DNA of 26,905 nucleotides from a virus: IMG/VR virus record IMGVR_UViG_3300006737_000155, positions 1 through 26,905 of that record; one strand, 5' to 3'. This document shows positions 2,406 through 19,912 of the stretch, in pieces (within the stretch, counting starts at the first letter, position 1; the number at the start of each line of letters is the position of its first letter). Position numbers and translations under genes: made by a program. Below the pieces are notes generated by a model. That model was not told the origin of the DNA, did not search any database, and saw only the letters and a list, made by a program, of their open reading frames with translations.

Positions 2406-2479
2406 GCAGTAGCTCTATTGTGCCTGTTCTAGGACGTTTGCAAACGCATTCGCTCTAGCCTCTGCGCAGTAGCTCTATT
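2406..2479. repeat. 14-bp direct repeat around the end of the 1180-aa core gene and the tail-fibre leader
   Basis: The sequence GCAGTAGCTCTATT (+ strand) occurs at 2406-2419 and again at 2466-2479, exactly 60 bp apart. The right copy contains the stop codon of the 1180-aa gene; the left copy lies in the tail-fibre leader, 13 bp upstream of its start codon. Between them is a perfect 12-bp palindrome, CGTTTGCAAACG, at 2435-2446. No hairpin with a T tract is present, so it is not an obvious terminator. Confidence 0.7.
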
Positions 2480-5400
2480 CTGCCCTTTGTATTGCTGAGG
2501 ACATAGCCTCAATCCGAGCCGCCGCCGCGCTCGCTCTTGGAGCGCCACCGATCTGATCCATCTGCGCTTGAGCCTGCTTGGCTCTAAGGATCTTCAGGCG
2601 TTCCTGCCACTGTTCAACTGATGGCGACGGGTTCTGTTCATTCTCAAACTTCGATTTGGTCATATGGCTGTAGTAACCCTTCACCGCCTCGACCATGATC
2701 ACTGCCGCTTGCTTGCGCCGTTCCTCTGCTGGCACGTTTTCATTACTCTGAAGCTCAGGATCATTCTCAATTGCCAAGAACATTGGGTCATTGGTCAATG
2801 ACTTCATTGCTTCAAGCACTGTCTTCCCTTCCGTGTGCTTGCCCAGGAACAAGGACATATCAAGGTTGAAATTCTTTGAGTCTTTCTTAACTGTGATACC
2901 TTCCACGGTTCGGAAGTTAATGCTGCCGGGAAGTTTGACCGTCCAAGTAGTGCTAACGCCAGAATTCTTCAGAGCCACGACAGGATCTGTTGTGCCTTTG
3001 ATAGATCCGAGCGTGTCGTTGAACTCCTTTTGAAGATCGTCGCTCATTGGAATGTCATCCAACCTTCGGGTGATGAGCTCGTCTGGAGGTGACAGCGCAC
3101 CTAATTGACGAAGCACTTTGTAGACACGTTCTTTCGGGTACAGCTTTGGAGAGAACCTGTTTTCCCAGTGATCCATGAAGTTTGCACCCCATTGCAGACG
3201 GATCGGACTGCCCAGCCAATCCTTGTCTTTATATGCCCCACCGGCAACTCCAGCCAAACCGCTGAAGTTATATGCCCAGTAGCGAAGTTCGGACTCAAGC
3301 TTTTCTGTCTCCTCTCGGGGGAATAACAGCTCGTCTTTATGAGTCCATGGAGCATCACGATAAAGATCTGACTGCTGCGAATTAGAGAACCGTTCAAGCG
3401 AACGCATTGGTCCCGCTCCTGGCACTTGACCCGCAGCCATGTAACCAACAAGAGAGCCAACTTTTTGGTCTGCGTTTTGCTGATTGCCAAAAACAATGTC
3501 AAACAATTGCTGCACTTGGCCCAATGCTGATGCCCTTTCAAGGTGCCCAGCGATTGCACCCAGCGCCGCATTAACCATTTTGTTTTGGTCAAACTGGCTG
3601 GCTCCTGCATAGGCCACGTTGTGAGCCATGTCCTCCATCAAGAACATGGTGTTGAAGATTGGGAACCCCCCAGGCAATGGAATACCCATGATTGAATTTG
3701 GAACCTTGCCTTGAGCGTCCAGCTCCATCCTCCATTGACGCTTGGCTTCAGGATCTGTAGGCCCATTGCCAATGATTGTTCTGCTGGCAGATAGCGTTCC
3801 CCATATCCCAAAGATCACGCCGGACATTGCCATGTTGGCTTTCATCCGACGGATCTTCACCTTGTCGCCATCCTTCATCGCTAATGCCAAACGGCCTGCT
3901 GCTACTGGTGGGAGCATTGTCATGTCCAAGCCAGTGCCGTTAAACGGTGCCTGAAAGTAAGGAAACGCCAGATCAACCCTTGGGTCTTGACGCATCTTCT
4001 GACCAGCGTCGTAGGCCAATTTCCCGAGCCCATCTTCTGGTGGCTTGGTGAATCGCATCTCAGAAGAGAAGTCACTAGCCGCTGCAATGTATGCGTTGGC
4101 ATTAGGGACTGGTGCGCTATACGTCTCACGAACTCTTTGCTCAACAATCATGTCCGCAATCGCCTGATCGCTCATCAGCTCAGGGGAAATTCCTTGATTA
4201 CGACGGAACGCAATGATCTGCTTTTCTGTTGGCTGCTTGGAATAGAACGACTCATCAAACTGTTTATTAACCCACTCATCCATTGCACGTTGCGCTTCCT
4301 CTGGAGACCGGCCTGCCTCGAAGTTCAGCTGCTCGCCCTGGAGCCGAGCTCGCATCTCAATGTCATGCCGCAGCTTGTAATTAAAGAAAGCCCAGCCAGC
4401 AGCATTATCAACAGAAGCCAATGACCTAAAGCCAGGTTGCAAGAACCACTGGCTGCCTGTCGCGTTATACATCCATAGCCTTACCGATGCGTGCATCCAG
4501 CGACGATGCCGATCAGGGTTTACCCAGCTCAGCGTCTTTGTCGCTGGATCTTGGAAGAAACCTTTGCGGGTACCGCCCCTTCTGGCATCCTCAAGCTCAG
4601 CAAGCATTTCATCAATTCGCTTCTCGTACTTGCCATAGGTTTCGACATTTTGCGTGTACATGTACTTGCCTTCTCTAAAGGCATCGAGAAAGACTTCTTT
4701 CCCTGAATCACGCATTGCACGAAACGCTGCGCCGTAACCCTCCCAATTGGCTTGCCACGCCACACGAGATGATTCCATCAGCTCAGTGCCATACGCCAGG
4801 ATTGGATTGGCATTAGTCGCTCTTCGTGCCTTCAACGAGTCTTGAATGATTTGAACATCTTCCAAGTAGGTTCTGGCAGGCCCAAGTATTGCCATCGCTG
4901 AGTTGGAACCGACATTCAAGAATTGGGTTCTTTCGTTCGTCAGCTGCTGGTCTTTGGCCATTGCATTGCCCAGCCTGAACCTGTTGTATTTGTATTGCTT
5001 TGGGTCGTACTTCTGCCCTAGTTCTGCTCCGCGAACAAGAATATCTGTCAGCTCAATTGTTAGCTGCTCCATTGCAGCATTTGGATCTGTGGAATTTTTG
5101 TCCGCAGAATCCAAGACTCTTGCAAACGACATCTCCTCAGATAAGTCGTTAAAAGTAAGATCCACCGCTTCCTGCATCTCAGCGACTCGATCAAGATCTG
5201 TCCCTTTGACGGAGGCATCCACATCTGCGAGTGCTTCTTGAATTTCAGGGTCAAGATCACCGAAAGCTTTTAGTGGACCCTCGAACCCTTTGCCTTGCAA
5301 CGCTTGGCCGAGGTATCCCCATTGGCTTCTGATCAAGTTGTAATGCCGAGTGGCCAGCATTGCCAGCTTGAAATTATTGAAGCCTTTGAGCTTCATCTCT

Positions 5401-6017
5401 GGTGGCACCACCTTCCCAGGGTTGGCAGCCATCCAATCCTTAATGCTCGTCGCTTGCGCCACATAAGCAGCATTTGCGGTGTCGTTAGCAAAGCGAACTG
5501 TCATCACCTGATCAAGCATTCCTGCCAGCCCTGGCGTTGGATCAGAGATAACTTTCAGCCAGCTGCGAATGTCCCCACGGCCAGTCAAATCTTGCAGCGT
5601 TTCTGCCCTGGCTCTTGGTGTAGAGAGTTTTGATTGCTTAAAGCCGGGGATGGCCTCAGCAGTTCCTTTCATTGCTGCGCCCATAACCCCCGTGTATTCA
5701 CGAACAAGCTCTTCCGGCTTGTCTCTTGCGATCTGGGTGTAGTTAAAAGGCTGACCCTCCCCGATGTTGACCCCAGGGGGCCTCCCACCTTTGCCCTGTT
5801 TTCTCAGCTCTGCTTGCCTTGCGCCTTCCGCCGCCTTTGCATTGACCTCTGGGTCAGACAGGTTATCTATCGCTGCATCTTGCGCCTTCCTGAACTCATC
5901 ATCTGAAGGGATGCGATTGAGCTGGATGTTGGACATCCGCGCCAACTCTTCGTCGTTGGCTTGCTTCTCAAGGTCAAGCGCAAGTTTGCGTTGAAATAGC
6001 TCGTCGCAACTAGCCAT
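2475..6017 (-). CDS. Giant internal virion (ejection) protein, counterpart of the gp16 C-terminal part
   Basis: 1180 aa, starting at ATG 6017 two bases after the stop of the 1540-aa gene (TGA-TC-ATG). It is mostly helical, charged sequence. A central-to-C-terminal region, FPYFQAPFNGTGLD followed by RMKANMAMSGVIFGIWGTLSAS, resembles the conserved membrane-associating segment of large T7 gp16-type core proteins. There is a predicted hydrophobic patch there and another around GLAGVAGGAY. No lytic transglycosylase motif is evident. In T7 the gp14/gp15/gp16 core is ejected into the cell to form a DNA-translocating channel, and position and size suggest the same job here. T7 has one 1318-aa gp16; here two consecutive large genes (1540 and 1180 aa) occupy its place. 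The internal-core role is an inference from gene order plus the conserved segment; a specific catalytic function is not supported. Confidence 0.7.
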   Translation of the reverse strand: MASCDELFQRKLALDLEKQANDEELARMSNIQLNRIPSDDEFRKAQDAAIDNLSDPEVNAKAAEGARQAELRKQGKGGRPPGVNIGEGQPFNYTQIARDKPEELVREYTGVMGAAMKGTAEAIPGFKQSKLSTPRARAETLQDLTGRGDIRSWLKVISDPTPGLAGMLDQVMTVRFANDTANAAYVAQATSIKDWMAANPGKVVPPEMKLKGFNNFKLAMLATRHYNLIRSQWGYLGQALQGKGFEGPLKAFGDLDPEIQEALADVDASVKGTDLDRVAEMQEAVDLTFNDLSEEMSFARVLDSADKNSTDPNAAMEQLTIELTDILVRGAELGQKYDPKQYKYNRFRLGNAMAKDQQLTNERTQFLNVGSNSAMAILGPARTYLEDVQIIQDSLKARRATNANPILAYGTELMESSRVAWQANWEGYGAAFRAMRDSGKEVFLDAFREGKYMYTQNVETYGKYEKRIDEMLAELEDARRGGTRKGFFQDPATKTLSWVNPDRHRRWMHASVRLWMYNATGSQWFLQPGFRSLASVDNAAGWAFFNYKLRHDIEMRARLQGEQLNFEAGRSPEEAQRAMDEWVNKQFDESFYSKQPTEKQIIAFRRNQGISPELMSDQAIADMIVEQRVRETYSAPVPNANAYIAAASDFSSEMRFTKPPEDGLGKLAYDAGQKMRQDPRVDLAFPYFQAPFNGTGLDMTMLPPVAAGRLALAMKDGDKVKIRRMKANMAMSGVIFGIWGTLSASRTIIGNGPTDPEAKRQWRMELDAQGKVPNSIMGIPLPGGFPIFNTMFLMEDMAHNVAYAGASQFDQNKMVNAALGAIAGHLERASALGQVQQLFDIVFGNQQNADQKVGSLVGYMAAGQVPGAGPMRSLERFSNSQQSDLYRDAPWTHKDELLFPREETEKLESELRYWAYNFSGLAGVAGGAYKDKDWLGSPIRLQWGANFMDHWENRFSPKLYPKERVYKVLRQLGALSPPDELITRRLDDIPMSDDLQKEFNDTLGSIKGTTDPVVALKNSGVSTTWTVKLPGSINFRTVEGITVKKDSKNFNLDMSLFLGKHTEGKTVLEAMKSLTNDPMFLAIENDPELQSNENVPAEERRKQAAVIMVEAVKGYYSHMTKSKFENEQNPSPSVEQWQERLKILRAKQAQAQMDQIGGAPRASAAAARIEAMSSAIQRAE

Positions 6018-6019
6018 GA

Positions 6020-9000
6020 TCAGCAGCCCTCCATGTTTAACTCGTCTGCCAGTTTGTCAGTGAGTACATCAAAGTCTGCCTGCTTTTGCTTCAGGTAGCT
6101 GTGGACTCGATCTGTCAGCTCAGGGAGCATTGCATCCATATTGGAATCAATACGGCCCTTTAGAGCTTCCAGCTGCTCTGGCCTCAGCTTGGCGATGGCT
6201 TGATTGCCCTTGTCAGCGATCTTGCCTTCTGCTGCTAGCTCAAAGACATCTACATAGGAGGGGTCTTTCCCGACCGCGAGCTTCCATTTACGTCGCAGAG
6301 TGTTGACGAACTTCTTGATCTTCTCAAAAGCAGCCTGGACACCGCCTGCTTTCATTCTGACCTTGCGGTTGTTGTACCAAGTGGCAAACGCTTCAGCTTG
6401 AAGCTCCTTGATGTTCATCCCTTTTTGATAATTCCCGAACCTGTCGCTTTTAACCAGCGCAGTCATTTCAGCAATTGCTTCCTCAGTTCCCATTGCTTCC
6501 ATCATTGAGACGGATTTAGAGCCAACGCCACCTTTAACGCTCATCTTTTCCAACCAATCCTGAACGGCATGAAATGCCTCGTGATAAGCAGTTCTCTGAA
6601 ACGGATAGCCAGCATCATTAGTCAACGCCTTGCTCGCCAGTCGCGTGTCAAGGCTTGGACCCATCGCCAGGTAAATCATGCTTCGGTGAATGCTTGGGTA
6701 GTCCCGTGGAACAAAGACGCCTGAAGTCTCTCCATCAACAACATCCATCAATGGATCGCCTGGGTTCTCTCTGGCAAACCGCGCAGCATTTGGATCCCAC
6801 TGCTCAAGCGCCTTGTTTGCATCTGCATCACCAAACAGCTTGCGAGTATCAACCTTGTCGAGGTATTGAATCCGCAGCGGATCTAGGCCGGAAATGCGAG
6901 CTGCATCTTTCAGCCCAGCAACCATTTCACGACCAAGCCCTTCGCTCACCCGTGTCATGCCTGCGATGGTGCTTGGCAGCTTGAGCCCAAGATCCAGCAG
7001 CGCAGCTTCCTGCGCGAACTTCCTGCGTTCAGCAGCCCCCTCGTAACGCTTGCGGAATTTGCCTTCGTCGTATTCACCAGACCGGCTGAGTTGTGGGCCA
7101 GTCCGTGACAGCCGTGGCGACGACGTTGACGCCAACGCTGACTTCGGCACCTGAATTGTGAACTCCTCCTGTGGAGCACGACGGCTGCCGGTGACTTCCT
7201 TAACGCCGTCTTGGATCTGAGCCTTGACCTCATCTCCAAGCGCCCTGATCTCATCAACGTCGTAGCCCTGCTCCTCCAGAGCAGCGATCATTCGGTCCTC
7301 ACCCTTGGACTTCTTCGCCTTGTTTCTGATCATGTAAGCCGCACGATCAAGATCGCTCTCGAACTGCAACTTGGCCCTGCCAAATCGTGGAGCTGATTTC
7401 GACAGGTCTTTGGGGATTACGAACTCAGCCGCAGGCAATGCTGGCGGCTGCATCGTGTCGGATAGCTCGCGAAGCCCAGCAGCCTGATCATCAATATGCT
7501 GGCCAATCTTTCTGGCCATTTGCCTGTCCAGTTCATTGCTTTCAGCAATGGCCGCTTTCATCTGCTCCGCTAAAGACTCCCCCTGCCGATCCATGATTCC
7601 GTCAACAGTTCGAGTGAACTTGCCAATCGATTGACCCAGGTCGTTTAGATCGCCACGCATCTGATCTGCCAACGACCTTCTTCGGGGCTTCTCAGCTTCC
7701 GCCAAACCATCCAGCATCCCGGCACCTTTCTTCTCCTCAAAAGTCATCTCGCTATAACCAATCGCCTTGCGTTCTGCTTCAAGTCGATCTGCATCAACTG
7801 CATCGTCGATGGCAGCCCACTCCTCACCTAGGCGAGCTTCGTTGTCGAGACCTTCCAGCAACGCAACATCAGCACGTTTGCCGTCAGTCGCAACCTTCCC
7901 CGGATCTGGAGTCTCAATTAGAGGGGTTGTTGATGGTCGTAATTCACCCTTCTTCGCTCCAGTCGCAAGAATCTTTTTGATCTGAGCTTTGCGTGGCAAC
8001 ACCTCGACCGTCTCCTCAGGAGCTTCGGCCTTGGCCTCTGGATCAATTGCTTTCTCTGGAGCAGGACTCTTCTCCGCTGCCTCGATCAACTGACGACGAA
8101 TGCGATCAGCAACAGCCTTGACCTTGGCTCCATTCTCAATCTCCAACGCGCCTTCGTTCAGCAGCTGGCTGGTGGGAGTATCCATGTACTTGCTGGCCTT
8201 GAACTCGTTCACCAACGCTTCGGTGTCATCTGCAAGCGACTTGGTTCCCGCTTTATTGATTTGGCTGCCAGCCCCCTCCAAGGTGTCAACATTTTTGGCT
8301 GCACTTGTTGCAGCTTTCTTCACCTGACGCAAGCCCTTTTCAATTGCGGCGGCAAGCTGACCCTTTTGAACCATCAGGTTCAGCATGTCGGTGTTCCCGA
8401 ATAGGTCCACCTGATCGCCTTGGACTGTTGGAGAAAACTTGGCCTGCTGGATTACTTCATCGAAGGTGGTATCTGTTAGATCACGCGATTGCAGCGCCTT
8501 ATATGCCTGCTGCATTCCGGTCTCGTCGAGACCGCTACCGCCTAGCGCCAGGGCCTTGCCTTTACTGACGATGCCATCAACTGCATCTTGGAAGATGTTG
8601 TCTGGCAGCTTGGACAACGCCATGCCTTCAACGGCCAGCCCTGACTTCAGTGGCATCCCGTCCGCTGTGAGTTGGGCTAGATCCGTAATGCCCGAATCGC
8701 GCATGTACTTGGCGGCATCAAAAGCGGTCCCCTTGTCATCCGCAATGTTGGCGATTGCTCCTTTAGCGCGAGCCAATTCAGCTGTTGGAGCATTGATGTA
8801 CTTGACTGGCAGGGAAGGAATGCGCAACTTGTCTGCCTTGGCCAAGCGGTTGTGGCCATTGACGACATAGGTCAGGCCATCCATTGGGTCCGTCCAGACC
8901 TGAACGATTCCTTCCATGTCCTCATTCCATACCTCAACGCCATCAAGCGAGTTGCCTTTCTGTTGGCCCTGGTCGTCAACGCCTTGCTTGAACTGGAATC

Positions 9001-10642
9001 GCTTTGGATCAACTTCGATGTCTTCCACCAACATCGTTGGCTGACCCATTAAGCGAGATGGCATCACCGTGCGGCCATCGGCTTCTAACCGCTCAATCGC
9101 AGAAAGAATGTCGAACCGATTGAAATTGGGCCATTCCTTGCCTGTTGCCTCACTGATCGCTTCAGAAAACGCCGGGCTGTTCTGCGGACTTGCTAGTGAC
9201 AGCAGGTTCTCTTGCGATACAGAACCAAAACGGTCACTGATGCTGCCTTCCCCCTGGGCGAGTTTTGACTTCGGTGCAGCAACTTCGTCGTAGGCCATGG
9301 CTGGATTGACAGCATTAGCCGCTGGAGCTGGAGAGCTGACCGTCTCAATAGCGACAGCTGTGTCAACGCCCTGCATCTGCAACTCGTTCATTCGAGCGAG
9401 TTGATCGTTTGAGAAATTACCCTCAATCGCCTCATAAGCCGCATCCACTTCAGGGATTGAAGGGTCGTATGTGACTTCAGTTGGGCCAACGTCACCCGTT
9501 ACGGCTGGCTCGCCGTCATCCGTTTGAACCCGACCTTCGACGTTCTCAGCTTCCTCTGGTTGCAACGTCTCCTTCGTGAATGAATACTTCCCGTCCTCAT
9601 CTTTTTGCTGAACGCCATTGGCTACCGTCTCGCTTCGCGCCGTCGTCCTTTGTGATGTTGCGGTTTGGGCAGTCTTGGCTCTTCTGATATTTGGCAGCCT
9701 GCTCAATGCCCGAGCTCCCACAGCCAAGCCACCTCCCAACAGCATTGCCGATCCAAGATTTGGCCAGAACGCTGCTTGTGAGGCTTCCGTCCGAGACATT
9801 CCTGGCTTGACCGGATCAGCGTCAGCGCCAAACAAGCCCAGCAAAGTGCCGCCAGTGTTGTCATCAAGGAAGGTGCTTAATGGTTCATCGACCAAGTTGC
9901 CTGCCGCCATGCGACTCAACATGCCCATGAAGGTTTTGCCTTTGGACGGATCAAGGAATTGAGTTGCACGACCAAGGGCTGGATAAGCCTTGCCAATGGC
10001 ACCAAAAACTTGGCCACCGCCAACGGCCAACGCTGTATTCAGCACCAAGCTGGATCTCATGTCGTCACCCGCAAGCTCGTCCTCGCTCATCTCGGATGGC
10101 AGCTTTGACTCTTGAGTTGCGGCGTAATAGTTATCAAGCACCTGATCAATGGCACCTTCTCTTGCTGGTGTCAGCCCTCCCCCACCATCCAGCACTGACT
10201 TGGCAACGTTTGCCGTGGCTTTAGCGCCACCCAGCGAAAGAGTGTTGCCTAAATCGTCAGGGAGATATTCAGTCGCAGGATTGTTCTTAATCGCTAAATG
10301 CGTCAACCGAGGCAAAGCTGTCTCTGGGCTAGACAGTTGGTTCAGCTCATATTGAGCATCGTTTACTGCACGATCAATAAACCCCGGCATCTTGCCTTGC
10401 GTAAGGCCTTGGATTGTTTCGACTGCATTCGGTGCATATCTCAATGCAGGAGCAACGTCCTCCACAACATCAACCGCTGCATCCTTTAGCTGCTCCCACC
10501 ACGGCTTATCCGGCGTAACCCTTTCAGGCTTTTGTCGAGGAGGTGCTTGCGTTGCTGTTGCAGTTTCAGGCAGTGGCGTTGTCGCGTCGGGATAGTCGCC
10601 CTCCCAGACGCTCTTGCCGTTTGAGTCAGTTGTCCAAGGCAT
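6020..10642 (-). CDS. Giant internal virion protein with ParB/sulfiredoxin-like domain and HExxH metallopeptidase motif
   Basis: 1540 aa, ATG at 10642 two bases after the preceding stop (TAA-TC-ATG). Visible parts in order: acidic, Pro-rich N-terminus; two Gly/Ala-rich hydrophobic stretches near 199-223 and 290-316 that could be membrane-active; low-complexity linker about 320-480; a ParB/sulfiredoxin-like segment about 540-660 with VVNGHNRLAKADKLRIPSLP at 593-612; long coiled-coil-like charged region 780-1150; near the C-terminus HEAFH at 1354-1358, a zincin HExxH motif, with EEAIAEM and AEAFATWY downstream supplying candidate third ligands (E1392 or E1417). The ParB-like plus zincin combination is typical of phage and plasmid polyvalent proteins. 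It sits where T7 has gp16 and is probably packaged and ejected with the DNA. The gp16-type N-terminal transglycosylase was not found. Function beyond these motifs is unknown. Confidence 0.75.
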   Translation of the reverse strand: MPWTTDSNGKSVWEGDYPDATTPLPETATATQAPPRQKPERVTPDKPWWEQLKDAAVDVVEDVAPALRYAPNAVETIQGLTQGKMPGFIDRAVNDAQYELNQLSSPETALPRLTHLAIKNNPATEYLPDDLGNTLSLGGAKATANVAKSVLDGGGGLTPAREGAIDQVLDNYYAATQESKLPSEMSEDELAGDDMRSSLVLNTALAVGGGQVFGAIGKAYPALGRATQFLDPSKGKTFMGMLSRMAAGNLVDEPLSTFLDDNTGGTLLGLFGADADPVKPGMSRTEASQAAFWPNLGSAMLLGGGLAVGARALSRLPNIRRAKTAQTATSQRTTARSETVANGVQQKDEDGKYSFTKETLQPEEAENVEGRVQTDDGEPAVTGDVGPTEVTYDPSIPEVDAAYEAIEGNFSNDQLARMNELQMQGVDTAVAIETVSSPAPAANAVNPAMAYDEVAAPKSKLAQGEGSISDRFGSVSQENLLSLASPQNSPAFSEAISEATGKEWPNFNRFDILSAIERLEADGRTVMPSRLMGQPTMLVEDIEVDPKRFQFKQGVDDQGQQKGNSLDGVEVWNEDMEGIVQVWTDPMDGLTYVVNGHNRLAKADKLRIPSLPVKYINAPTAELARAKGAIANIADDKGTAFDAAKYMRDSGITDLAQLTADGMPLKSGLAVEGMALSKLPDNIFQDAVDGIVSKGKALALGGSGLDETGMQQAYKALQSRDLTDTTFDEVIQQAKFSPTVQGDQVDLFGNTDMLNLMVQKGQLAAAIEKGLRQVKKAATSAAKNVDTLEGAGSQINKAGTKSLADDTEALVNEFKASKYMDTPTSQLLNEGALEIENGAKVKAVADRIRRQLIEAAEKSPAPEKAIDPEAKAEAPEETVEVLPRKAQIKKILATGAKKGELRPSTTPLIETPDPGKVATDGKRADVALLEGLDNEARLGEEWAAIDDAVDADRLEAERKAIGYSEMTFEEKKGAGMLDGLAEAEKPRRRSLADQMRGDLNDLGQSIGKFTRTVDGIMDRQGESLAEQMKAAIAESNELDRQMARKIGQHIDDQAAGLRELSDTMQPPALPAAEFVIPKDLSKSAPRFGRAKLQFESDLDRAAYMIRNKAKKSKGEDRMIAALEEQGYDVDEIRALGDEVKAQIQDGVKEVTGSRRAPQEEFTIQVPKSALASTSSPRLSRTGPQLSRSGEYDEGKFRKRYEGAAERRKFAQEAALLDLGLKLPSTIAGMTRVSEGLGREMVAGLKDAARISGLDPLRIQYLDKVDTRKLFGDADANKALEQWDPNAARFARENPGDPLMDVVDGETSGVFVPRDYPSIHRSMIYLAMGPSLDTRLASKALTNDAGYPFQRTAYHEAFHAVQDWLEKMSVKGGVGSKSVSMMEAMGTEEAIAEMTALVKSDRFGNYQKGMNIKELQAEAFATWYNNRKVRMKAGGVQAAFEKIKKFVNTLRRKWKLAVGKDPSYVDVFELAAEGKIADKGNQAIAKLRPEQLEALKGRIDSNMDAMLPELTDRVHSYLKQKQADFDVLTDKLADELNMEGC

Positions 10643-10644
10643 GA

Positions 10645-13296
10645 TTAGTTCCCGAGTTGTTGAGCGATGGACCGACGCAGTTGGTCGTAATTGGAGTAAG
10701 GCGTCATGCTTTTGCTCCCAGCAGGAGCAGGAGCCAAGAAGTCAATCGATGCGATGGTTCCATCGGCTGACCGGACACGTCCCGTGCCTCCCTGACGGCC
10801 GATGATCTGACCTGCCTCGATTGGCTGACCAGCTCTCAACGTCGAACCACTTGCAAGGTGTGAATAAAGAACATCAACAACAGCGCCCGTCATTGGGTCG
10901 CGACTTTCCACAACGATGTAATGCCCATAACCGCTGTCAGCACCACCCTGAAAATTCACCTCTTTTACGCGACCAGGCAGCACAGCAGGAAACTGCTTGT
11001 TTTCAAAAAACACGTCGATGCCTGACTGGTTTGTGTCGTATGTGATCGACGACACCTGGGGCCGGAAGCTGCTTAATTGAGCAGGAGCTCCAAGCCTGGA
11101 ATCAAATGTGGGTTGCCTTGTGGCTGCTCTTGCTGGAGGCGTGAGAATGTTGACGAATGCTCTCGTTGCCATAGCCAATGGCCCATTCCCCGTAGGGGCC
11201 GCAGTAGCGAATGAGTTGGAAACGCCTTGAGCTTGATTGCTGTTTTGCTTGACCTTTCGCCGGATGTCGGGCGGCACAGGCAAGCCAAGACGATTGGCGT
11301 TTTCCAGCAGGAACTCACCTGGCGTCATGCCGGATGCTGCCGCTGCCCTGCGAACACTTGCGGGGATTGGATCGCCATCCCGCAACGTTTGCAGCATCTG
11401 GATTGTTGATTCCTGGTTGTAAACGGGAGCACCGCTATCAAGTGCTTCTTGCGGCACTGGCCCCTGAGGGCTGAAGTATTTCGGGATCGGTTGCGGCGCT
11501 GGTGCGCTGCTTGTATTTGAATTTGATGGAGAGCTTGCAGGCTCAGGCCTTGGCACTCCCTCGACAGGGATCAGTGCATCCATCAGCTCCGGGTCGTTAA
11601 GAGCTTTCTCGGTAACTTCAAGCCAGATTTGTGACTGCCTCCCAGGCAGCAGGATGCCGCCGTTTTTCTCAGTCTCGGCAATAATTGCGTTCTCGCCTTG
11701 CTGCGTGATGTAAGCCCTAAACCGCTGTATTCCGCGAGTTTCGTTTACTTCTTGCATCGCGATGTAGTCCGAGATGGACACACCTTCTGCTGCTGCCGAC
11801 CTAAGCATTGCCATGCCATCTTCCCCTAGTCTTAGCCTTAATGCACGATCTAAAGCGTCGTTAATCCCATCTGTTGAAGTCGCGGAATCTATTTCACCAC
11901 TGCGTTGTCGGCGCTTACGTTCAATAATAGTGTTCGTTCGTGTTTCAAACTCTTTCCTTGCTGTTGCTGGAAGAGTCTTTCTAATCTGTGCTGCTTTCTT
12001 TCTAAATGTTCCTTCGTCATACCCAGGATTATCCGCCGTACCGTAAAACTCTTCAAGGCTCATCGTGTCAACATTGAGCTCTTGAAATTCAAGATTTTGC
12101 TTGGCAGCATCAAGCATGATCTGCCGACGCTTAATAGGAGAAAGCTCTGGATATAGTTCCGCAATCCTGGCGTCTTCTGCACTCCACTCAGGGCTGCCTG
12201 GAGCGAAGCCAAACCAATTAGCAGACTGCTTCTCAACCTCAAATTCCATTGCAGCCTGATCGTTATCGCGCAGCGTCTTGAGGTCTCTGCTGCTGGCCGC
12301 TTGGCCTTTGACGATTTCATTGCCATAGGCCATCCCTACGGTCAGCCCCGGAACTCCGCTTGGAAGGTTCAACAGCCTCCTCATAGCCAGCGTGGCTTTT
12401 TGCCTAGTCGCTGGGTCGGCCATTTGTGCGCTAAGAAGCTCGGCGGTGTGTAGATATGCCTTCTTTGTCATCTCCACCGGCTCGCCAACCAAACCAAAAC
12501 TCGCGGCCTGGGCTCCCATGAAGTCGACGATGTTGTCATCAGACGCTCCCGTCATCAACTTGTTGTTTAGGAAGGTTCCTGTTTGCCTATACCCAACTTC
12601 TTTCTGATATTTGACGTGAGCTGCGTCCTGTTTTTGTCGCAGCCATTCCCATCCCTTGTTGATCTGAGGAACGACGTATTCCTGGAAGCCTGGACTGAAC
12701 TCATCCAGCCCAAATGCTCCCGCCAGGTCGCTGGTAACCCTGGCTTCAATAGCTGTTATTGAATTGTCAGAAGGATCCAGTTGAGCAAGGTTTGAACCTT
12801 GACTTGCCCATGCAGCGCGAAACTGGTCTTGAGCTTTGGTCGCAACAAATTGGCTTGCTTGATTGATGCGACCAGCTTGCCTAAATGGATTCGCTTGATC
12901 CATCAGCACACCCGCCACGGGGTTTACTGCACTGACCTCACGGTTCTCTCTCGCGTATTGAAGCGACTTGCTAATCGTGTCGCGATTGATGTTGCTTGCA
13001 GCCCTAAGAATTTCGTTCTGGCCACGCTTGTACTGGTTCGATGCGTAATACTCAGCGCCATAGTCATACAACTGGGTCAAAGGCTTCAATGCCTCTGTCA
13101 ACTCTGCGATTGGATTAACGCCTTGAATTGACCGGTCAGCTTGCCTTTGGATGATGTTGACCCCTTGGGGCCTGCCGAGCATGTTTGGCCTAGACGGCTG
13201 CGCCGGATCGCCATCATTCTTGAACTGCAAGAAGTTGGAGACGGGCCTAGCGGATGGCGTCAGTGAACCTGCGCCTAATCGTTGTGGTGCTGGCAT
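10645..13296 (-). CDS. Internal core protein, T7 gp15-like, with C-terminal M23-like domain
   Basis: 883 aa; ATG at 13296 overlaps the preceding stop (TAATG) and has a good Shine-Dalgarno, GGGAGGAAG, just upstream. Residues 1 to about 600 are helical, Q/E/R-rich core-protein sequence, consistent with gp15, which forms the periplasmic tunnel in T7 ejection. A Ser/Pro/Asn linker near 600-625 leads to a C-terminal domain (about 755-865) with the layout of an M23 (LytM-type) endopeptidase: GIDVFF at 759, GYGHYIVVES with H792, LYSHLASG with H813, and then SIDFLAP at 850. The canonical first His of HxGxD is Gln here and the final HxH is SID, so two usual zinc-ligand positions are changed while D761 and H813 remain. 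It could be a modified or structural peptidoglycan-binding domain. The gp15 role comes from order and size (T7 gp15 747 aa); the M23 relation comes from the motif layout. Confidence 0.8.
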   Translation of the reverse strand: MPAPQRLGAGSLTPSARPVSNFLQFKNDGDPAQPSRPNMLGRPQGVNIIQRQADRSIQGVNPIAELTEALKPLTQLYDYGAEYYASNQYKRGQNEILRAASNINRDTISKSLQYARENREVSAVNPVAGVLMDQANPFRQAGRINQASQFVATKAQDQFRAAWASQGSNLAQLDPSDNSITAIEARVTSDLAGAFGLDEFSPGFQEYVVPQINKGWEWLRQKQDAAHVKYQKEVGYRQTGTFLNNKLMTGASDDNIVDFMGAQAASFGLVGEPVEMTKKAYLHTAELLSAQMADPATRQKATLAMRRLLNLPSGVPGLTVGMAYGNEIVKGQAASSRDLKTLRDNDQAAMEFEVEKQSANWFGFAPGSPEWSAEDARIAELYPELSPIKRRQIMLDAAKQNLEFQELNVDTMSLEEFYGTADNPGYDEGTFRKKAAQIRKTLPATARKEFETRTNTIIERKRRQRSGEIDSATSTDGINDALDRALRLRLGEDGMAMLRSAAAEGVSISDYIAMQEVNETRGIQRFRAYITQQGENAIIAETEKNGGILLPGRQSQIWLEVTEKALNDPELMDALIPVEGVPRPEPASSPSNSNTSSAPAPQPIPKYFSPQGPVPQEALDSGAPVYNQESTIQMLQTLRDGDPIPASVRRAAAASGMTPGEFLLENANRLGLPVPPDIRRKVKQNSNQAQGVSNSFATAAPTGNGPLAMATRAFVNILTPPARAATRQPTFDSRLGAPAQLSSFRPQVSSITYDTNQSGIDVFFENKQFPAVLPGRVKEVNFQGGADSGYGHYIVVESRDPMTGAVVDVLYSHLASGSTLRAGQPIEAGQIIGRQGGTGRVRSADGTIASIDFLAPAPAGSKSMTPYSNYDQLRRSIAQQLGN

Positions 13297-14105
13297 TACT
13301 TCTTCCTCCCTGAATTGGTGTACGGCTTAACTGAGTTGTATGTATTGATCCCAGCTCCAACGGCCCCGATGGCAGAACCTAAGAACGCTGTCGATGCACT
13401 TGGAGCAGCGCCAACAAACGACGGACCAGCAGGATTAACCAGCGTCGGCAACGGTGCAAACGGCATGATCGGGTCTTGAATGTCCTGCATCTCGTAGAGC
13501 TGCTGACTGTTGTATTGGTTCAGATAGTTGGCGATATTTCCGGCTTGATCTCTTGTGTATTGCCGATCTCGAAACTTCTGGTTCATCATTTGCAGCGATG
13601 CCATATCGCCGGACTGCCTGGCGTAGTCATTTAGATAACGATCACTGCTAGCTCCAGCATTTAACCCAGCGGCTGTTGTCGCTTGGGCTCGCAACGCTTG
13701 CTGCTTGTACTGCATCAGCGACACAGCATCAGCCATCGACTGTTGGCTAAATGCTTCAGCCGTGGCCTCACTGGCCTGCATGAAGTTAGCGCCAGCTCCA
13801 GCCCTTGCTTGCTGAACTAGCTCCGCCTGGTCGATGGATCTAGCCAGCTCAAAATTGCGTAGCTGATTGGCATAAACAACCTCTTGGCCGTAATTGACCT
13901 GTTGCTGCCAATAGGAGTATTGATTATTGAGGTCTGTCTGCTGCTGCTGCTGAGAGGCAGACCACGAAGCAAACTCGGCGCTGGCTTTGCGTTGCGCCTG
14001 TTGGTTGAGATATTCCTGCTGCCTGGCGTTATTGCCCAGCATCCCCATCCCAAAGTTAAGAAGACCGGAGCCAACGGCCAGGGTCATCGGGTTGATAACA
14101 ACCAT
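13296..14105 (-). CDS. Internal virion protein, T7 gp14-like
   Basis: 269 aa, ATG at 14105 sharing a base with the preceding stop (TGATG). After a short hydrophobic, Gly/Met-rich N-terminus (MTLAVGSGLLNFGMGMLG) the protein is rich in Gln, Ala and Ser with long helical stretches. The C-terminus contains a Gly/Ala hydrophobic stretch (AFLGSAIGAVGAGI near 240-253). T7 gp14 (196 aa) is the first core protein ejected and inserts into the outer membrane, and the Gly/Ala hydrophobic segments fit that. The gene lies between the gp13-like and gp15-like genes exactly as in T7. Sequence motifs alone would be weak; order and composition carry the call. Confidence 0.75.
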   Translation of the reverse strand: MVVINPMTLAVGSGLLNFGMGMLGNNARQQEYLNQQAQRKASAEFASWSASQQQQQTDLNNQYSYWQQQVNYGQEVVYANQLRNFELARSIDQAELVQQARAGAGANFMQASEATAEAFSQQSMADAVSLMQYKQQALRAQATTAAGLNAGASSDRYLNDYARQSGDMASLQMMNQKFRDRQYTRDQAGNIANYLNQYNSQQLYEMQDIQDPIMPFAPLPTLVNPAGPSFVGAAPSASTAFLGSAIGAVGAGINTYNSVKPYTNSGRKK

Positions 14106-14554
14106 CAGCTGTTCCTCCAGAAATCACAGAACAAAGCGCCAGACTTCCCAATTGGCTTGGGAATATCAACGGTAAAACCAAGCATCTTTAACCAACGAAT
14201 TGACTCAGCGTTCTTGAAATACACCTGATTAAACAGCGGTCCACCCACTTCTTCAAAGCAACTGTCTACCCATTTTCGCCCTTCAACGATTAACTGCCAC
14301 CTGCCCCTACGTGTTGCTGTCAGCTCAGGAGTTCCCAGCATCCAAATGCGATGCTCTGCGACCCCGCAGAGACCAACAGGAACACCTTCATCGCTTGCAA
14401 TCCCACGGCATATATCTGAGTCGCAATAGCTGGATTTAACCGCTTCGTGTGGACTCATCCCATGACTCAGCATTACCTCCTCCACATCTGACGGTCTGAG
14501 GTTGTGGCCAATCCACACAGCATCACTGGCTGACGGCTCCATGATCCACTGCAT
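14105..14554 (-). CDS. T7 gp13-like protein (GNAT-like fold, DUF2833 type)
   Basis: 149 aa from ATG 14554. This start overlaps the stop of the tail tube B gene (TGATG), the junction type used throughout the operon; a GTG at 14614 and an ATG at 14593 would add 20 or 13 residues, so the start is open. The pattern matches the gp13 family: LRPSDVEEVMLSHGMSP near 19-35, GVPVGLCGV near 57-65, WMLGTPEL near 71-78, and FKNAESIRWLKMLGF near 113-127, which is the acetyltransferase-like N...A...LGF signature. T7 gp13 is needed for proper internal core assembly; whether the fold acetylates anything is unknown. The location between tail tube B and the gp14-like gene supports the assignment. Confidence 0.85.
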   Translation of the reverse strand: MQWIMEPSASDAVWIGHNLRPSDVEEVMLSHGMSPHEAVKSSYCDSDICRGIASDEGVPVGLCGVAEHRIWMLGTPELTATRRGRWQLIVEGRKWVDSCFEEVGGPLFNQVYFKNAESIRWLKMLGFTVDIPKPIGKSGALFCDFWRNS

Positions 14555-17079
14555 CAGCTCGCCCCTGAACGGCTGGTCATGCCACCGATCCATTCGCAAG
14601 TTGAAAACTTGCACGGATGCGGGGTGTCGTTCAACAGCTCCACCAGGACGCGATCACCACGACCCATAATCGGAATGTTGAATACGCCCTCGTAATAACG
14701 CTGTTGTGACTCTGTTGTTGGAGACGTGTCCCCAATCTTTGATTCCCTAACCGCCAAGACTGTTGCATCAAAGGTATAAAGGCCCGGAGAGCGGTGCTCC
14801 GGCATTGTCTTTGCCTGAAAGAAACCTGTTTCGTGATAACCCAGCTTTGCCTGTCGGATTTGGGTCCGAACCACGTTTCGAGGCGCTTTACCGCCACCAA
14901 TATCTTGCATCAACTTGAAGCGCGAAAAGCGATAACGAAATTCGTACTTCTCTCCAGCCCAAACGTCTGCTGTTGACCAATCACCTCTTACCGTAATTGT
15001 CGTGCCAGACAATGTTGAACCCAAAAGGACTGGGCCAGGTTTGCCGCTTCCACTGTTGTTATAAGCCGACCAAATCTGAATCTCGTTTGTGGCGACATAA
15101 GGCAAGGTGAATGTGGTCTCGCGCGTTTGCTCGCTGTAAACGCCTGGCGCAATCTTTAGTGCAACTGGAGTCGCTGAAGTGCTGCTTACAAGCCTGTCGA
15201 GAAGAACTGGCAGCAACCCGTTACTGGGTTCCTCCGCTCGATCAAGAACGGATATGGCTTCTAAATAAACCTTGTCGCCATAACGCATTAAGCAATAAAG
15301 AATCTCCCTGATGCAAACGACCTGAAGAACCTCGTCTGCCCCAAATTCCCAATAACTCCAGCTGTTCTGTACACGCTCAGGACCGCTGCCCGTATTTCGC
15401 AGGAACCATTTGTATGTATAGATCCGTTTGCGGTAGTCAATTCCATCCGCGCCGTACCTGGAGCTGATCAGGAACGCCGAATTTCCAGCGTCATTGACTG
15501 TGAGCTTGAAGCATTCGTCAGGGATGTATGAGCTGACGTAGCCAGTCAAGTCCGCAGCATCGGCAGTCAACGCTGTTCCTGCACCCCGCACAGCAAATTC
15601 ACGCATCTGCGACCATTGGCCGTTGGACTGCATGAAAAAGATGCCACCGCCTGCCTGCTGTGGCCTCACCTCAACATCAACATCGAACTGCGTCAGCACT
15701 GTGATCTGCGCTGTCGCTGGAGTCAGGACAGTCTCAGCAGCGTTAAACCTGAACTGGATCTGACTGGAAAAGAGGATCAGCTCGTCTTGATAAGGAACTG
15801 CGTAGCGAAGGACCGAAACACGGTTATTGCTAGCAATAACATCAATAGGGTCAGTATCCAGAACAGTCGTAACCGTCTCAGGGAAAAACTCAAAGAACTC
15901 TCGAACTCTGCTGAGGACAACGTTTTCATCAGCCAAGAATCCAAGCCGGTTCTTGTAGATAAAGATGTCATTAATCGCATAACCAATGAATGAAGGATCA
16001 GGAGCTGTGTCGTAATCGCCAGCAGTACGTTGCCCCCATTCAGGGACTCCATCAGGGATGCCGTTTACCGTTTGGCCATTTACCGGGCCAAACCAAAACG
16101 ACAGTGGAGTTGAGTTCGTCCTAATCAGGACATGAGGCATCGTTAGCGGATCAACTCTGTACTCGACACCAGGGCTTACCGTTTCAGCCCAGGCTCCTTC
16201 GCCAAATGTTCCGCTGCGAGGCTCAAACTCGACGTAGTAGTTATCGAATGCTGTCCCCGGATCTCCTGTGATCTCGACCTGATAGCCCTCAGGGGCAATT
16301 GTTGGCAGTTCGATAAAAGCCTGAACTTCGCCAAGAATTGCAGTAATCGTGCTGTTTGCTTTGGCATCAGTTGCTTTGACCGTTATTGGGCTTGTTCCCC
16401 AAACCCAAATCACTGAGCCTGATTGTTCAAGCGTGTAGCCCGTCAAGCCAGCGGTGCCCAGCGCCGTTATCAGTTGCTCGGCAATTTCTTCACTACTGAT
16501 TCTGTTCTCGGTGACGGTTGAACCATTGCTAACCACTGGGGCTACAGGGGTCTGGACAGTGGCTTCAAACCCGTTGATGTTTAGGACGTACTCGTTGCCA
16601 TAAGCAGCCTGCTTAATCCAAACCAAACACTCATGAGGTGGCCTGCTGCTGACTGGCGCTGTGGCCGAGTCCATTGCTGTGGCCTTTGTTGTGTTGCTGA
16701 TCCATGTGAAATCAGCAATTGTTACGGCCCGAATCTGCTGACGTGCATCAGTAACTCCGCTCAAATAGCTGTAAGCGCCAGAGTCTTGAACAACATTGAC
16801 TGGATTTCCAGCTAGGTCAAATACTTGAATCCCATTGCTGGTAATAACAGCGATGTATTCCTCTTGCTGGTCCCTAAGAATCGTATGAAAAAAGGCATCA
16901 CCAAAAGGTGTGTCGCTGACCTTGGCAAGGGTTCTACTGCTGTCGCGCTTCCTTAATCCTTCCGCAATCGAGGAGACGCCATTGATTTGTATTGCACCTT
17001 GACTTGGGTCACGCTGCGCGTCCGGCTGATTGCTCACACCTTGGATGAGATTAGGGATCGTGAACGCAATGTTTTTCAT
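14554..17079 (-). CDS. Tail tubular protein B (nozzle), T7 gp12-like
   Basis: 841 aa (T7 gp12 is 794 aa). ATG at 17079 overlaps the upstream stop (TAATG). The N-terminus, IPNLIQGVSNQPDAQRDPSQ, is the conserved opening of gp12-type tail nozzle proteins. Further family-like segments are DNYYVEFEPRSGTFGEGAWAE near the middle, FEFFPETVTTVLDTDPIDV, and a late beta-rich region. It should form the hexameric nozzle to which fibres and the adaptor attach, and it is the largest tail component. It is directly coupled to the gp11-like gene upstream and the gp13-like gene downstream. Confidence 0.93.
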   Translation of the reverse strand: MKNIAFTIPNLIQGVSNQPDAQRDPSQGAIQINGVSSIAEGLRKRDSSRTLAKVSDTPFGDAFFHTILRDQQEEYIAVITSNGIQVFDLAGNPVNVVQDSGAYSYLSGVTDARQQIRAVTIADFTWISNTTKATAMDSATAPVSSRPPHECLVWIKQAAYGNEYVLNINGFEATVQTPVAPVVSNGSTVTENRISSEEIAEQLITALGTAGLTGYTLEQSGSVIWVWGTSPITVKATDAKANSTITAILGEVQAFIELPTIAPEGYQVEITGDPGTAFDNYYVEFEPRSGTFGEGAWAETVSPGVEYRVDPLTMPHVLIRTNSTPLSFWFGPVNGQTVNGIPDGVPEWGQRTAGDYDTAPDPSFIGYAINDIFIYKNRLGFLADENVVLSRVREFFEFFPETVTTVLDTDPIDVIASNNRVSVLRYAVPYQDELILFSSQIQFRFNAAETVLTPATAQITVLTQFDVDVEVRPQQAGGGIFFMQSNGQWSQMREFAVRGAGTALTADAADLTGYVSSYIPDECFKLTVNDAGNSAFLISSRYGADGIDYRKRIYTYKWFLRNTGSGPERVQNSWSYWEFGADEVLQVVCIREILYCLMRYGDKVYLEAISVLDRAEEPSNGLLPVLLDRLVSSTSATPVALKIAPGVYSEQTRETTFTLPYVATNEIQIWSAYNNSGSGKPGPVLLGSTLSGTTITVRGDWSTADVWAGEKYEFRYRFSRFKLMQDIGGGKAPRNVVRTQIRQAKLGYHETGFFQAKTMPEHRSPGLYTFDATVLAVRESKIGDTSPTTESQQRYYEGVFNIPIMGRGDRVLVELLNDTPHPCKFSTCEWIGGMTSRSGAS

Positions 17080-18991: not shown

Positions 18992-19912
18992 CTAGAAGTC
19001 TGGTGAAGCGTGCAATATCATCGCCACCTTGTTCCTGTAAGCCTCATCAACATCGTAAAGACGCTGACCTCTGTCATTCCGTTTATTCATTGCGTCGAGG
19101 ACTTGCTGTTGACTTTCAAACCTGACCACCGTGTCTGTTGGTGATCCGCCCCCGTAGAGCTTTGGCTCCACAACAGCGTCAGGGGCCACCTGACGGGCTT
19201 GCATTGCCTTCAATGCCCAACTAATGGCCTCTTTGTTGCCCGAGTCCACCACAGCGTTGTAATTGGCTAATTCTTCTGCTGGCAGGTTGGCTTTAGCCCA
19301 GCCACTTAGCTGATCAAAGTTCTCTTGGCCGCCAACAGATTGCAGCAGCTCTGTTGCATCAGCATCAGACAGTCCCGCCTCGCCAGTTGACGGGGCGGAT
19401 TGCGCCTTTGATACATAGTTCTCCACCACTTGGCGGGGCACTTTGAATGTTTCAGCCAGCGTGTCGTAGTGCTCCGAGATGTCAGCGCCCTGGTCGGCGT
19501 TCCACATCAACTCAGCAAGATCGACACCTTTCTCGGCAAGTGCTCCAACTGCTTCTTTGCCATAAACCTCACTGGCTTGATCAGCGGAATAGCCAGGAGC
19601 TTCGGCTGCTTCAGGCTCAGCAGCAGGCTCAGGCTGAGGTTCAGCAGAAGACTGCTGACCCATCTTGCGCTGAAGCTCCGCATAAGCCTTCGCCAAATCT
19701 TGGGGAGACTTGAACTTGCCGAGGATTGCTTCTTCTTCCTGAAGTTGTTCCTGTTCCTGGGCAAATTCTTCGACAATTCCCTCTTGGCCGGGGCCAACCA
19801 TCCCGCCCTTTTCGCCTTCAGGAACAGTCAGTTGAGGTGAAGTGTCGGTTTGTGATCCTTCGACAAAAGGTTGAGGATCGGCCATTACTGGTCTGCCGAG
19901 TTCAGGACTCAT
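18992..19912 (-). CDS. Scaffolding protein, T7 gp9-like
   Basis: 306 aa (T7 gp9 307 aa). ATG at 19912 overlaps the portal stop as ATGA; a second in-frame ATG ten residues in (MADPQPFVEG) is an alternative. The protein is strongly acidic, with an E/Q-rich region near 45-60, then the scaffold signature GKFKSPQDLAKAYAELQRKMGQ (about 65-86), an Ala/Glu/Pro-rich linker, and a helical C-terminal half. The scaffold lines the procapsid interior and leaves before DNA packaging. It is flanked by portal and capsid genes as in T7. Confidence 0.93.
   Translation of the reverse strand: MSPELGRPVMADPQPFVEGSQTDTSPQLTVPEGEKGGMVGPGQEGIVEEFAQEQEQLQEEEAILGKFKSPQDLAKAYAELQRKMGQQSSAEPQPEPAAEPEAAEAPGYSADQASEVYGKEAVGALAEKGVDLAELMWNADQGADISEHYDTLAETFKVPRQVVENYVSKAQSAPSTGEAGLSDADATELLQSVGGQENFDQLSGWAKANLPAEELANYNAVVDSGNKEAISWALKAMQARQVAPDAVVEPKLYGGGSPTDTVVRFESQQQVLDAMNKRNDRGQRLYDVDEAYRNKVAMILHASPDF

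What the first reader, a model, noticed from the sequence alone, without database searches (positions are those of the whole stretch)
6020..10642. Probable ejected core protein carrying ParB/sulfiredoxin-like and HExxH metallopeptidase modules
Seen: GHNR-type ParB-like core at about residues 593-616 and HEAFH at 1354-1358 with downstream Glu candidates. Known: ddrB-like ParB domains and zincin domains are hallmarks of polyvalent proteins that phages and plasmids deliver with their DNA to counter host defences. Inferred: this gp16-position protein may combine DNA translocation with effector activities acting in the newly infected cell, such as proteolysis of a host factor or nucleic acid processing.
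Basis: partly seen in the sequence, partly recalled or inferred. Interest (0 to 1): 0.68.

Follow-up and report, generated by a model that had tools for sequence, protein, structure and literature searches.

The report
Phage injection protein with swappable effector domains
A T7-like aquatic phage carries, among the proteins it probably fires into its host ahead of its DNA, a 1,540-residue protein with a ParB-like DNA/nucleotide-binding module and an intact-looking zinc protease; close relatives keep the first part but swap the second for other enzymes, as if changing warheads.

Summary
ORF 6020-10642 (-) has GHNR at residues 596-599, HEAFH at 1354-1358 and a third ligand, Glu1413. In a 36-sequence alignment of the protease region the only four invariant columns are H1354, E1355, H1358 and E1413.

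AlphaFold plus Foldseek put residues 533-745 in the ParB superfamily: the best 30 PDB hits are ParB, Noc, KorB, Spo0J or sulfiredoxin, covering the nucleotide-binding domain and the HTH domain. It is not DdrB-like by the Pfam test (PF18763 finds P1 DdrB, not this). The protease fold gets only weak PDB support.

The gene holds the gp16 position of a T7-like internal-virion-protein cluster, found in 75 distinct contigs. ParB is in 54 of 55 complete homologs; zincin in 39, ART-like domains in 15, neither in 10. Phages 92-98% identical on both sides differ in this C-terminal cassette. Prochlorococcus phage P-SCSP1, whose core proteins had no annotation, carries ParB, zincin and ART-like modules in one 2,564-residue protein.

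Best reading: a polyvalent ejected protein with a constant ParB core and exchangeable effectors. Presence in virions, ejection, protease activity and targets are inferred, not shown.

The parts
6020..10642 (-). Whole ORF, 1540 aa, gp16-position protein; ATG at 10642
9083..10642 (-). Residues 1-520: N-terminal region with two weakly hydrophobic stretches (199-217, 290-308); no family match; conserved with ParB in close relatives
8678..9046 (-). Residues about 533-655: ParB N-domain (ParB/Srx superfamily, nucleotide-binding fold)
   Evidence: AF2 mean pLDDT 87.7; Foldseek PDB top 30 all ParB/Noc/KorB/Spo0J/Srx; phrog_21 540-859
8846..8857 (-). GHNR motif, residues 596-599
8408..8677 (-). Residues about 656-745: ParB HTH (M) domain
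   Evidence: profile A4 matches M. xanthus ParB HTH domain, E 0.003; HTH_ParB in one member, E 0.013; Foldseek alignment length
7703..8002 (-). Residues about 881-980: conserved linker module ('LPDz', my label), in 50 of 55 complete homologs
7145..7423 (-). Residues about 1074-1166: small alpha/beta module with a PRYGR...SDLDRAAYxI-like signature ('PRYG', my label), also in P-SCSP2 gp30
6167..6979 (-). Residues about 1222-1492: zincin-type metallopeptidase module
   Evidence: AF2 mean pLDDT 83.9 for 1060-1500; four invariant catalytic columns; homology to polyvalent protein zincins
6569..6583 (-). HEAFH, residues 1354-1358 (two Zn ligands and general base)
6404..6406 (-). Glu1413, predicted third Zn ligand (ELQAEAF)
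   Evidence: invariant in 36 sequences
6020..6166 (-). Residues 1493-1540 and stop: helical tail ending EGC; its codons contain the Shine-Dalgarno-like GGAGG of the next gene
10645..13296 (-). gp15-position neighbour, 883 aa, C-terminal M23/LytM-like module (wall hydrolase, apparently degenerate)
13296..14105 (-). gp14-position neighbour, 269 aa, no family match
14105..14614 (-). Homolog of T7 gp13 (phrog_308, internal virion protein)
2475..6017 (-). Downstream partner, 1180 aa; P-SCSP1 has one continuous 2564-aa ORF at this position, but homology of its C-terminal part to this protein was not significant

Best explanation
This is a polyvalent ejected protein of a T7-like phage. It is made late, packed with the gp13/14/15-type internal proteins, and delivered into the host before or with the DNA. 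The N-terminal part (1-520) and the ParB core (533-745) are the constant carrier: the ParB N and HTH domains bind DNA and/or a nucleotide, and so keep the protein on the incoming genome or sense a host nucleotide. The C-terminal cassette (about 1070-1492) is the payload: in this phage an intact-looking zincin that cleaves a host protein, or first frees itself from the carrier, early in infection. Relatives carry ART-like or other modules in the same place, so the payload is exchangeable and probably host-dependent. Shown here: sequence features, ParB fold (predicted), invariant HExxH...E, synteny, and cassette exchange between near-identical phages. Inferred: packaging, ejection, DNA or nucleotide binding, proteolysis, target.
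For: ParB: confident AF2 model (pLDDT 87.7); PDB Foldseek top 30 all ParB-family or sulfiredoxin, best E 4e-5; profile match to M. xanthus ParB HTH domain, E 0.003. Zincin: only H1354, E1355, H1358, E1413 invariant in 36 sequences; AF2 pLDDT 83.9. Same zincin in canonical polyvalent proteins: L098 (3121 aa) has it with InPase and LPD1/3/5/38; L097 has it with LPD3/LPD39; the Ruegeria phage 45A6 protein has both domains (hhalign 99.7% and 96%; controls at most 0.4%). Position: gp12, gp13 homolog (hhalign 94.9%), two proteins, this gene, 1180-aa protein; 75 distinct syntenic contigs. Module turnover: ParB in 54/55 complete homologs, zincin 39, ART-like 15, neither 10. 54 of 125 pairs at least 80% identical over N-term+ParB differ in C-terminal modules. 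Locus alignments break there: L071/L077 96.6% over 10.8 kb, then replacement, then 92.6%; L024/L029 differ by one ART-like insertion. ART call: PARP Pfam 2.8e-5; all 30 PDB profile hits are PARP/tankyrase.
Against: No virion proteomics exists for this family in what I could read; the cryo-EM paper on P-SCSP1u models capsid, portal, adaptor, nozzle and fibre, and a term search found no mass spectrometry in it. No significant homology of the neighbouring proteins to T7 gp14, gp15 or gp16. Zincin model has no PDB match below E 0.15. Pfam's MPTase-PolyVal and ddrB-ParB models do not match. Most module boundaries come from my own iterated HMMs, and contigs are metagenomic assemblies.
Confidence: 0.6

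Rival explanations
1. The zincin is a processing protease: it cuts its own polypeptide (or neighbouring core proteins) before packaging or on ejection, as proposed for phage P1 DdrB, and has no host target.
For: Iyer et al. propose autoprocessing for P1 DdrB, which is cut before packaging (PMC5512222). The protease sits at the C-terminus of a large multidomain chain. P-SCSP1 has one continuous 2564-aa ORF at this position, where cutting would make sense.
Against: 16 of 55 complete homologs lack the zincin, some in phages more than 92% identical on both sides, so it is not needed for assembly in those phages. N4 vRNAP carries an HExxH domain yet is packaged uncut (PMC5512222).
Confidence: 0.22
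2. A gp16-type structural channel protein in which the ParB and zincin modules are scaffolds or relics with no activity in the host.
For: Position and size match T7 gp16; weakly hydrophobic N-terminal stretches; the neighbouring M23 module has lost likely Zn ligands, so dead enzyme modules may occur in this cluster.
Against: All four zincin residues are invariant while the rest of the domain has diverged to about 20% identity, which is what selection on catalysis leaves. Module exchange with ART-like domains does not fit a structural role.
Confidence: 0.1
3. The ParB module is the effector: an NTP-regulated nicking nuclease acting on host or rival DNA, as proposed for DdrB-like ParB domains; the zincin only releases it.
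For: Literature on ParB/Srx nucleases cited in PMC5512222. ParB is the most constant module (54/55) and R599 and N595 are conserved.
Against: It is not DdrB-like by Pfam. It carries a HTH domain, as in DNA-binding ParB proteins. A constant module is a better candidate for a shared carrier function than for an arms-race effector.
Confidence: 0.12
4. The protein is not in virions at all; it is a late cytoplasmic protein (e.g. genome partition or superinfection exclusion) that happens to lie in the structural operon.
For: No virion proteomics known for the family; classical ParB proteins act in the cell.
Against: Regular placement between internal-virion-protein genes across 75 contigs; no ParA-like family was reported for the window's other ORFs.
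Confidence: 0.06

Closest known systems
Phage P1 DdrB (AAQ13996.1), polyvalent protein with DdrB-like ParB and C-terminal zincin
   Same: One phage protein with an N-terminal ParB/Srx domain and a C-terminal HExxH zincin; P1 DdrB is a processed head protein according to PMC5512222
   Different: Different ParB family: PF18763 hits P1 DdrB at 6e-42 and nothing here; hhalign to DdrB only 4.7% probability, E 0.009. P1 is a myophage; here a T7-like operon. 995 against 1540 aa
Ruegeria phage 45A6 giant protein (ANH49087.1)
   Same: Homologous ParB+HTH region (hhalign 99.7%) and zincin (96%) in one protein
   Different: Over 3,500 aa, about 1,800 aa between the two domains; not in a recognised gp13-gp16 cluster
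Prochlorococcus phage P-SCSP1 gp25 (ULF49719.1 in P-SCSP1g; P-SCSP1u, with solved capsid and tail, has a homolog)
   Same: ParB (GHNR), PRYG, zincin (HESFH) in the same order and place
   Different: 2564 aa: adds an ART-like domain and a long C-terminal region in one ORF; annotated only as hypothetical, and PMC9860041 assigns no function to it in the passages read
Uncultured phage MedDCM-OCT-S31-C1 protein BAQ94395.1 (UniProt A0A6S4PA15)
   Same: Closest relative in the phage collection, same module order and synteny; UniProt already names it 'Large polyvalent protein associated domain-containing protein'
   Different: 35% identity over the best 54%; HESWH instead of HEAFH
N4 virion RNA polymerase, C1 domain (residues 2124-2375)
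   Same: HExxH-bearing domain in a giant protein ejected as part of a DNA-ejectosome (PMC12633501)
   Different: No significant profile match to this zincin; carries an RNA polymerase, no ParB
T7 gp16
   Same: Fourth internal-virion-protein gene after gp12, after a gp13 homolog
   Different: No gp16 family match for this protein and none for its neighbours' profiles; the wall hydrolase module lies in the neighbour here, and enzyme modules of other kinds in this protein

Membership tests
Polyvalent proteins (Iyer et al. 2017) | Two or more domains of disparate biochemistry in one polypeptide | tested here: met
   ParB+HTH and zincin; ART in relatives
Polyvalent proteins (Iyer et al. 2017) | Shares domain families with recognised polyvalent proteins | tested here: met
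   Zincin shared with L098 (InPase, LPD1/3/5/38) and L097 (LPD3, LPD39); both domains in Ruegeria phage 45A6
Polyvalent proteins (Iyer et al. 2017) | Encoded among late virion genes (phage type) | tested here: met
Polyvalent proteins (Iyer et al. 2017) | Injected into the host with the DNA | not testable with these tools
   needs virion proteomics and fractionation
ParB superfamily (N-domain + HTH domain) | ParB/Srx fold followed by ParB-type HTH domain | tested here: met
   (predicted structure)
ParB superfamily (N-domain + HTH domain) | Canonical CTP-hydrolysis motif GERR | tested here: not met
   GHNR instead, invariant G-H-N with near-invariant R; CTP binding itself untested. GERR as the canonical form is from general knowledge; so fold membership, not CTPase function, is claimed
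DdrB-like ParB (PF18763) | Match to the Pfam family | tested here: not met
   no hit in the window or 7 relatives at E<=1; P1 DdrB 5.9e-42
DdrB-like ParB (PF18763) | Conserved active-site Arg and Asp/Asn at end of strand 2 | tested here: met
   R599 and N595 nearly invariant, N595 ends the predicted strand 591-595
DdrB-like ParB (PF18763) | Extra helix with conserved Tyr | not tested
   no coordinates available to compare
Zincin metallopeptidase | HExxH plus downstream Glu ligand | tested here: met
   H1354, E1355, H1358, E1413 the only invariant columns of 36 sequences
Zincin metallopeptidase | Zincin fold | tested here: inconclusive
   confident model; the two best PDB matches are structures of one zincin (anthrax lethal factor, also the comparator used in PMC5512222) but E 0.15 and 0.26; strong viral hits are relatives
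MPTase-PolyVal (PF18818) | Match to the Pfam family | tested here: not met
   weakly informative because P1 DdrB and N4 vRNAP, both with zincins, also fail
T7-type ejectosome cluster | gp13-gp16 gene order after gp12, with internal virion protein homologs and a wall hydrolase | tested here: met
   gp13 homolog 94.9%; M23-like module in neighbour; order
T7-type ejectosome cluster | Homology to gp14/gp15/gp16 | tested here: inconclusive
   no significant hhalign match of neighbour profiles; these proteins diverge fast
T7-type ejectosome cluster | Present in virion core | not testable with these tools
   needs virion proteomics

The most novel reading that the evidence does not exclude
T7-like phages of lakes and oceans carry a polymorphic delivery protein inside the head: a constant N-terminal and ParB carrier that rides with the incoming DNA, plus a rapidly exchanged cassette of effectors (zincin, several ART types, unnamed modules), with the neighbouring core protein swapping its wall-cutting enzyme in parallel. 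It would be the phage counterpart of polymorphic toxins, used against the host.
Probability: 0.45. Interest if true: 0.78.

Novelty: new variant of a known kind. Interest (0 to 1): 0.6.

Why it matters
Polyvalent proteins were predicted in 2017 to be injected weapons of phages and plasmids, with P1 DdrB and N4 vRNAP as prototypes. Here the same idea sits in the ejection cluster of a T7-like lineage common in aquatic metagenomes, including cultured, structurally studied cyanophages (P-SCSP1) whose core proteins had no assignment. The clean cassette exchange between near-identical phages points to the modules as the host-facing, fast-evolving part, and gives natural near-isogenic pairs to compare. 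ART-like and protease domains delivered at time zero could help explain early host takeover in picocyanobacteria and other aquatic bacteria.

Tried and rejected
Pfam on the full protein: nothing above chance (PepSY_2 and Glutaredoxin hits at E 0.01-0.04 rejected). phrog_21 'portal protein' label: rejected, the match covers only the ParB part of a composite profile and the real portal/connector is at 19909-21555. DdrB-like ParB (PF18763): not met. Homology of the 1180-aa downstream protein to the C-terminal part of P-SCSP1 gp25: colinear but not significant (2% probability, E 0.02), left open. Homology of the neighbours to T7 gp14/15/16: none found. A special meaning for the conserved C-terminal EGC: partly explained by the ribosome-binding site of the next gene, though the Cys is kept when the stop shifts. 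Genome-contig scan: 9 hits only (mostly cyanobacterial, one Sphingomonadaceae MAG), not informative about host. The idea that the zincin is an obligatory maturation protease was dropped because 16 of 55 complete homologs lack it.

Full report
OBSERVATION. The ORF at 6020-10642 (- strand) encodes 1540 aa. GHNR lies at 596-599 and HEAFH at 1354-1358, as reported; the predicted third zinc ligand is Glu1413. With only 7 His in the protein, 0.0024 HExxH motifs are expected by chance. The window is an IMG/VR viral contig of 26,905 bases.

SURROUNDINGS. All large genes are on the - strand: terminase large subunit, head-tail connector, scaffold, major capsid protein, two tail tube proteins, a gp13 homolog (phrog_308; hhalign to T7 gp13 94.9%, E 4e-8), a 269-aa protein, an 883-aa protein ending in an M23-like module, the present protein, an 1180-aa protein, and a long ORF at the contig end in the tail-fibre position. 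This is the T7 order gp12-13-14-15-16 with an additional gene.

RELATIVES. tblastn finds the MedDCM phage protein and 18 Prochlorococcus phages. Three IMG/VR scans gave over 100 loci. After removal of duplicates 101 distinct contigs encode the ParB or the zincin module, 75 of them with at least one homolog of the window's gp12, gp13-, gp14-, gp15-position or downstream neighbours; 55 of their ORFs are complete.

PARB. The 391-residue segment 500-890, modelled from 50 sequences, has mean pLDDT 87.7. The first 30 PDB matches are ParB, Noc, KorB, Spo0J or sulfiredoxin (best E 4e-5), mostly over about 200 columns, so N-domain and HTH domain together. A sequence profile independently finds the M. 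xanthus ParB HTH domain (E 0.003). The motif GERR of canonical ParB (general knowledge) is GHNR here. Pfam ddrB-ParB finds P1 DdrB (5.9e-42) and none of the family, and hhalign to DdrB is weak.

ZINCIN. Over 36 diverged sequences H1354, E1355, H1358 and E1413 are the only invariant columns. The model of 1060-1500 has mean pLDDT 83.9. PDB matches are weak; the two best are zincin structures (E 0.15 and 0.26), and the viral library returns relatives, the first named by UniProt as a large polyvalent protein associated domain protein. The same zincin occurs in a 3121-aa protein with InPase, LPD1, LPD3, LPD5 and LPD38 and in one with LPD3 and LPD39. Ruegeria phage 45A6 has both modules in one giant protein. 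So the zincin belongs to the polyvalent network, although PF18818 does not match it; PF18818 does not match P1 DdrB or N4 vRNAP either, so it decides nothing.

MODULE EXCHANGE. Of 55 complete syntenic homologs, ParB is in 54, the zincin in 39, ART-like domains in 15 (9 with both), neither in 10. The commonest type of ART-like module is supported by Pfam PARP (2.8e-5) and by a profile search whose 30 PDB hits are all PARP or tankyrase; the other three types rest on weaker Pfam hits or on sequence pattern alone. Among 125 pairs at least 80% identical over N-terminus and ParB, 54 differ in C-terminal modules; the pairs are not independent. In the clearest cases locus alignments break at the cassette: L071/L077 are 96.6% identical for 10.8 kb, differ in the module region, and are 92.6% identical after it; L024/L029 differ by a single inserted ART-like segment; L073/L084 are 96-99% identical around exchanged segments. 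L026 and L028, from different metagenomes, carry the same cassette, which speaks against assembly chimeras. The neighbouring 883-aa-type protein appears to exchange its wall-hydrolase module as well.

MECHANISM. The constant part is the N-terminus plus ParB, the variable part the enzyme cassette. The simplest reading is a carrier that goes in with the DNA and a payload that acts on the host. In this phage the payload is an intact-looking zincin. Shown: motifs, predicted ParB fold, synteny, exchange. Inferred: packaging, ejection, activity, target. The processing-protease rival is weakened because near-identical phages lack the zincin, but a dual role is not excluded.

COMPARISON. Polyvalent proteins are known (PMC5512222). 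A term search of that paper found no gp16, T7-like or internal virion, and it reports a paucity in cyanobacteria. The P-SCSP1/P-SCSP2 paper could only guess internal virion proteins from size and position and found no similarity between the two phages in the genes it named (g20/g21 of P-SCSP1a, g29/g31 of P-SCSP2) (PMC9860041). Here P-SCSP1g gp25 proves to contain ParB, PRYG, zincin and ART-like modules, and P-SCSP2 gp30 shares the PRYG module. N4 vRNAP, an ejected protein with an HExxH domain, is the best functional analogue (PMC12633501). Literature searches combining polyvalent proteins with Autographiviridae or pelagiphages returned no title or abstract on this; most subscription papers were not searchable.

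VERDICT. Real, well supported as a family, partly anticipated by the polyvalent-protein concept, new in its place (T7-like ejection cluster of aquatic phages) and in the directly visible cassette exchange.

Noticed in passing
window 10645-13296 (-), residues about 751-841 of that protein; relatives L037, L071, L076, L029: The gp15-position neighbour's M23/LytM module has NQSGID where HxGxD is expected and IDF where HxH is expected, so it is probably inactive; relatives carry different modules there (SLT/transglycosylase-like in L076 and L029, others unassigned).
   Followed up: partly
window 6020-6034 and 6006-6017; 44 of 56 complete ORFs: The protein ends in a nearly invariant EGC or GGC whose codons contain the next gene's Shine-Dalgarno-like sequence; the Cys is kept even when the stop position shifts, and the next protein has a Cys within its first residues (MASCDE here).
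   Followed up: partly
phrog_21 (portal protein) hit, window residues 540-859: PHROG 21 is a composite profile: its C-terminal 330 positions are this ParB region, so ParB proteins of this family are liable to be mis-annotated as portal proteins.
   Followed up: yes
L111 (P-SCSP2 gp30, residues about 446-560) and window residues 1074-1166: A small unnamed module (PRYG...SDIDKVAYIL) is shared by the P-SCSP1 and P-SCSP2 large proteins; P-SCSP2 gp30 has neither the GHNR nor an HExxH motif.
   Followed up: partly
L067, L074: Proteins with two tandem ParB modules and no effector modules detected, outside the T7-like cluster.
   Followed up: no
L054, L061, L070, L075 and similar: A second, non-T7-like group in which the same ParB module sits in proteins with short Cys-rich segments such as CGxxxIxxxxxC.
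   Followed up: no
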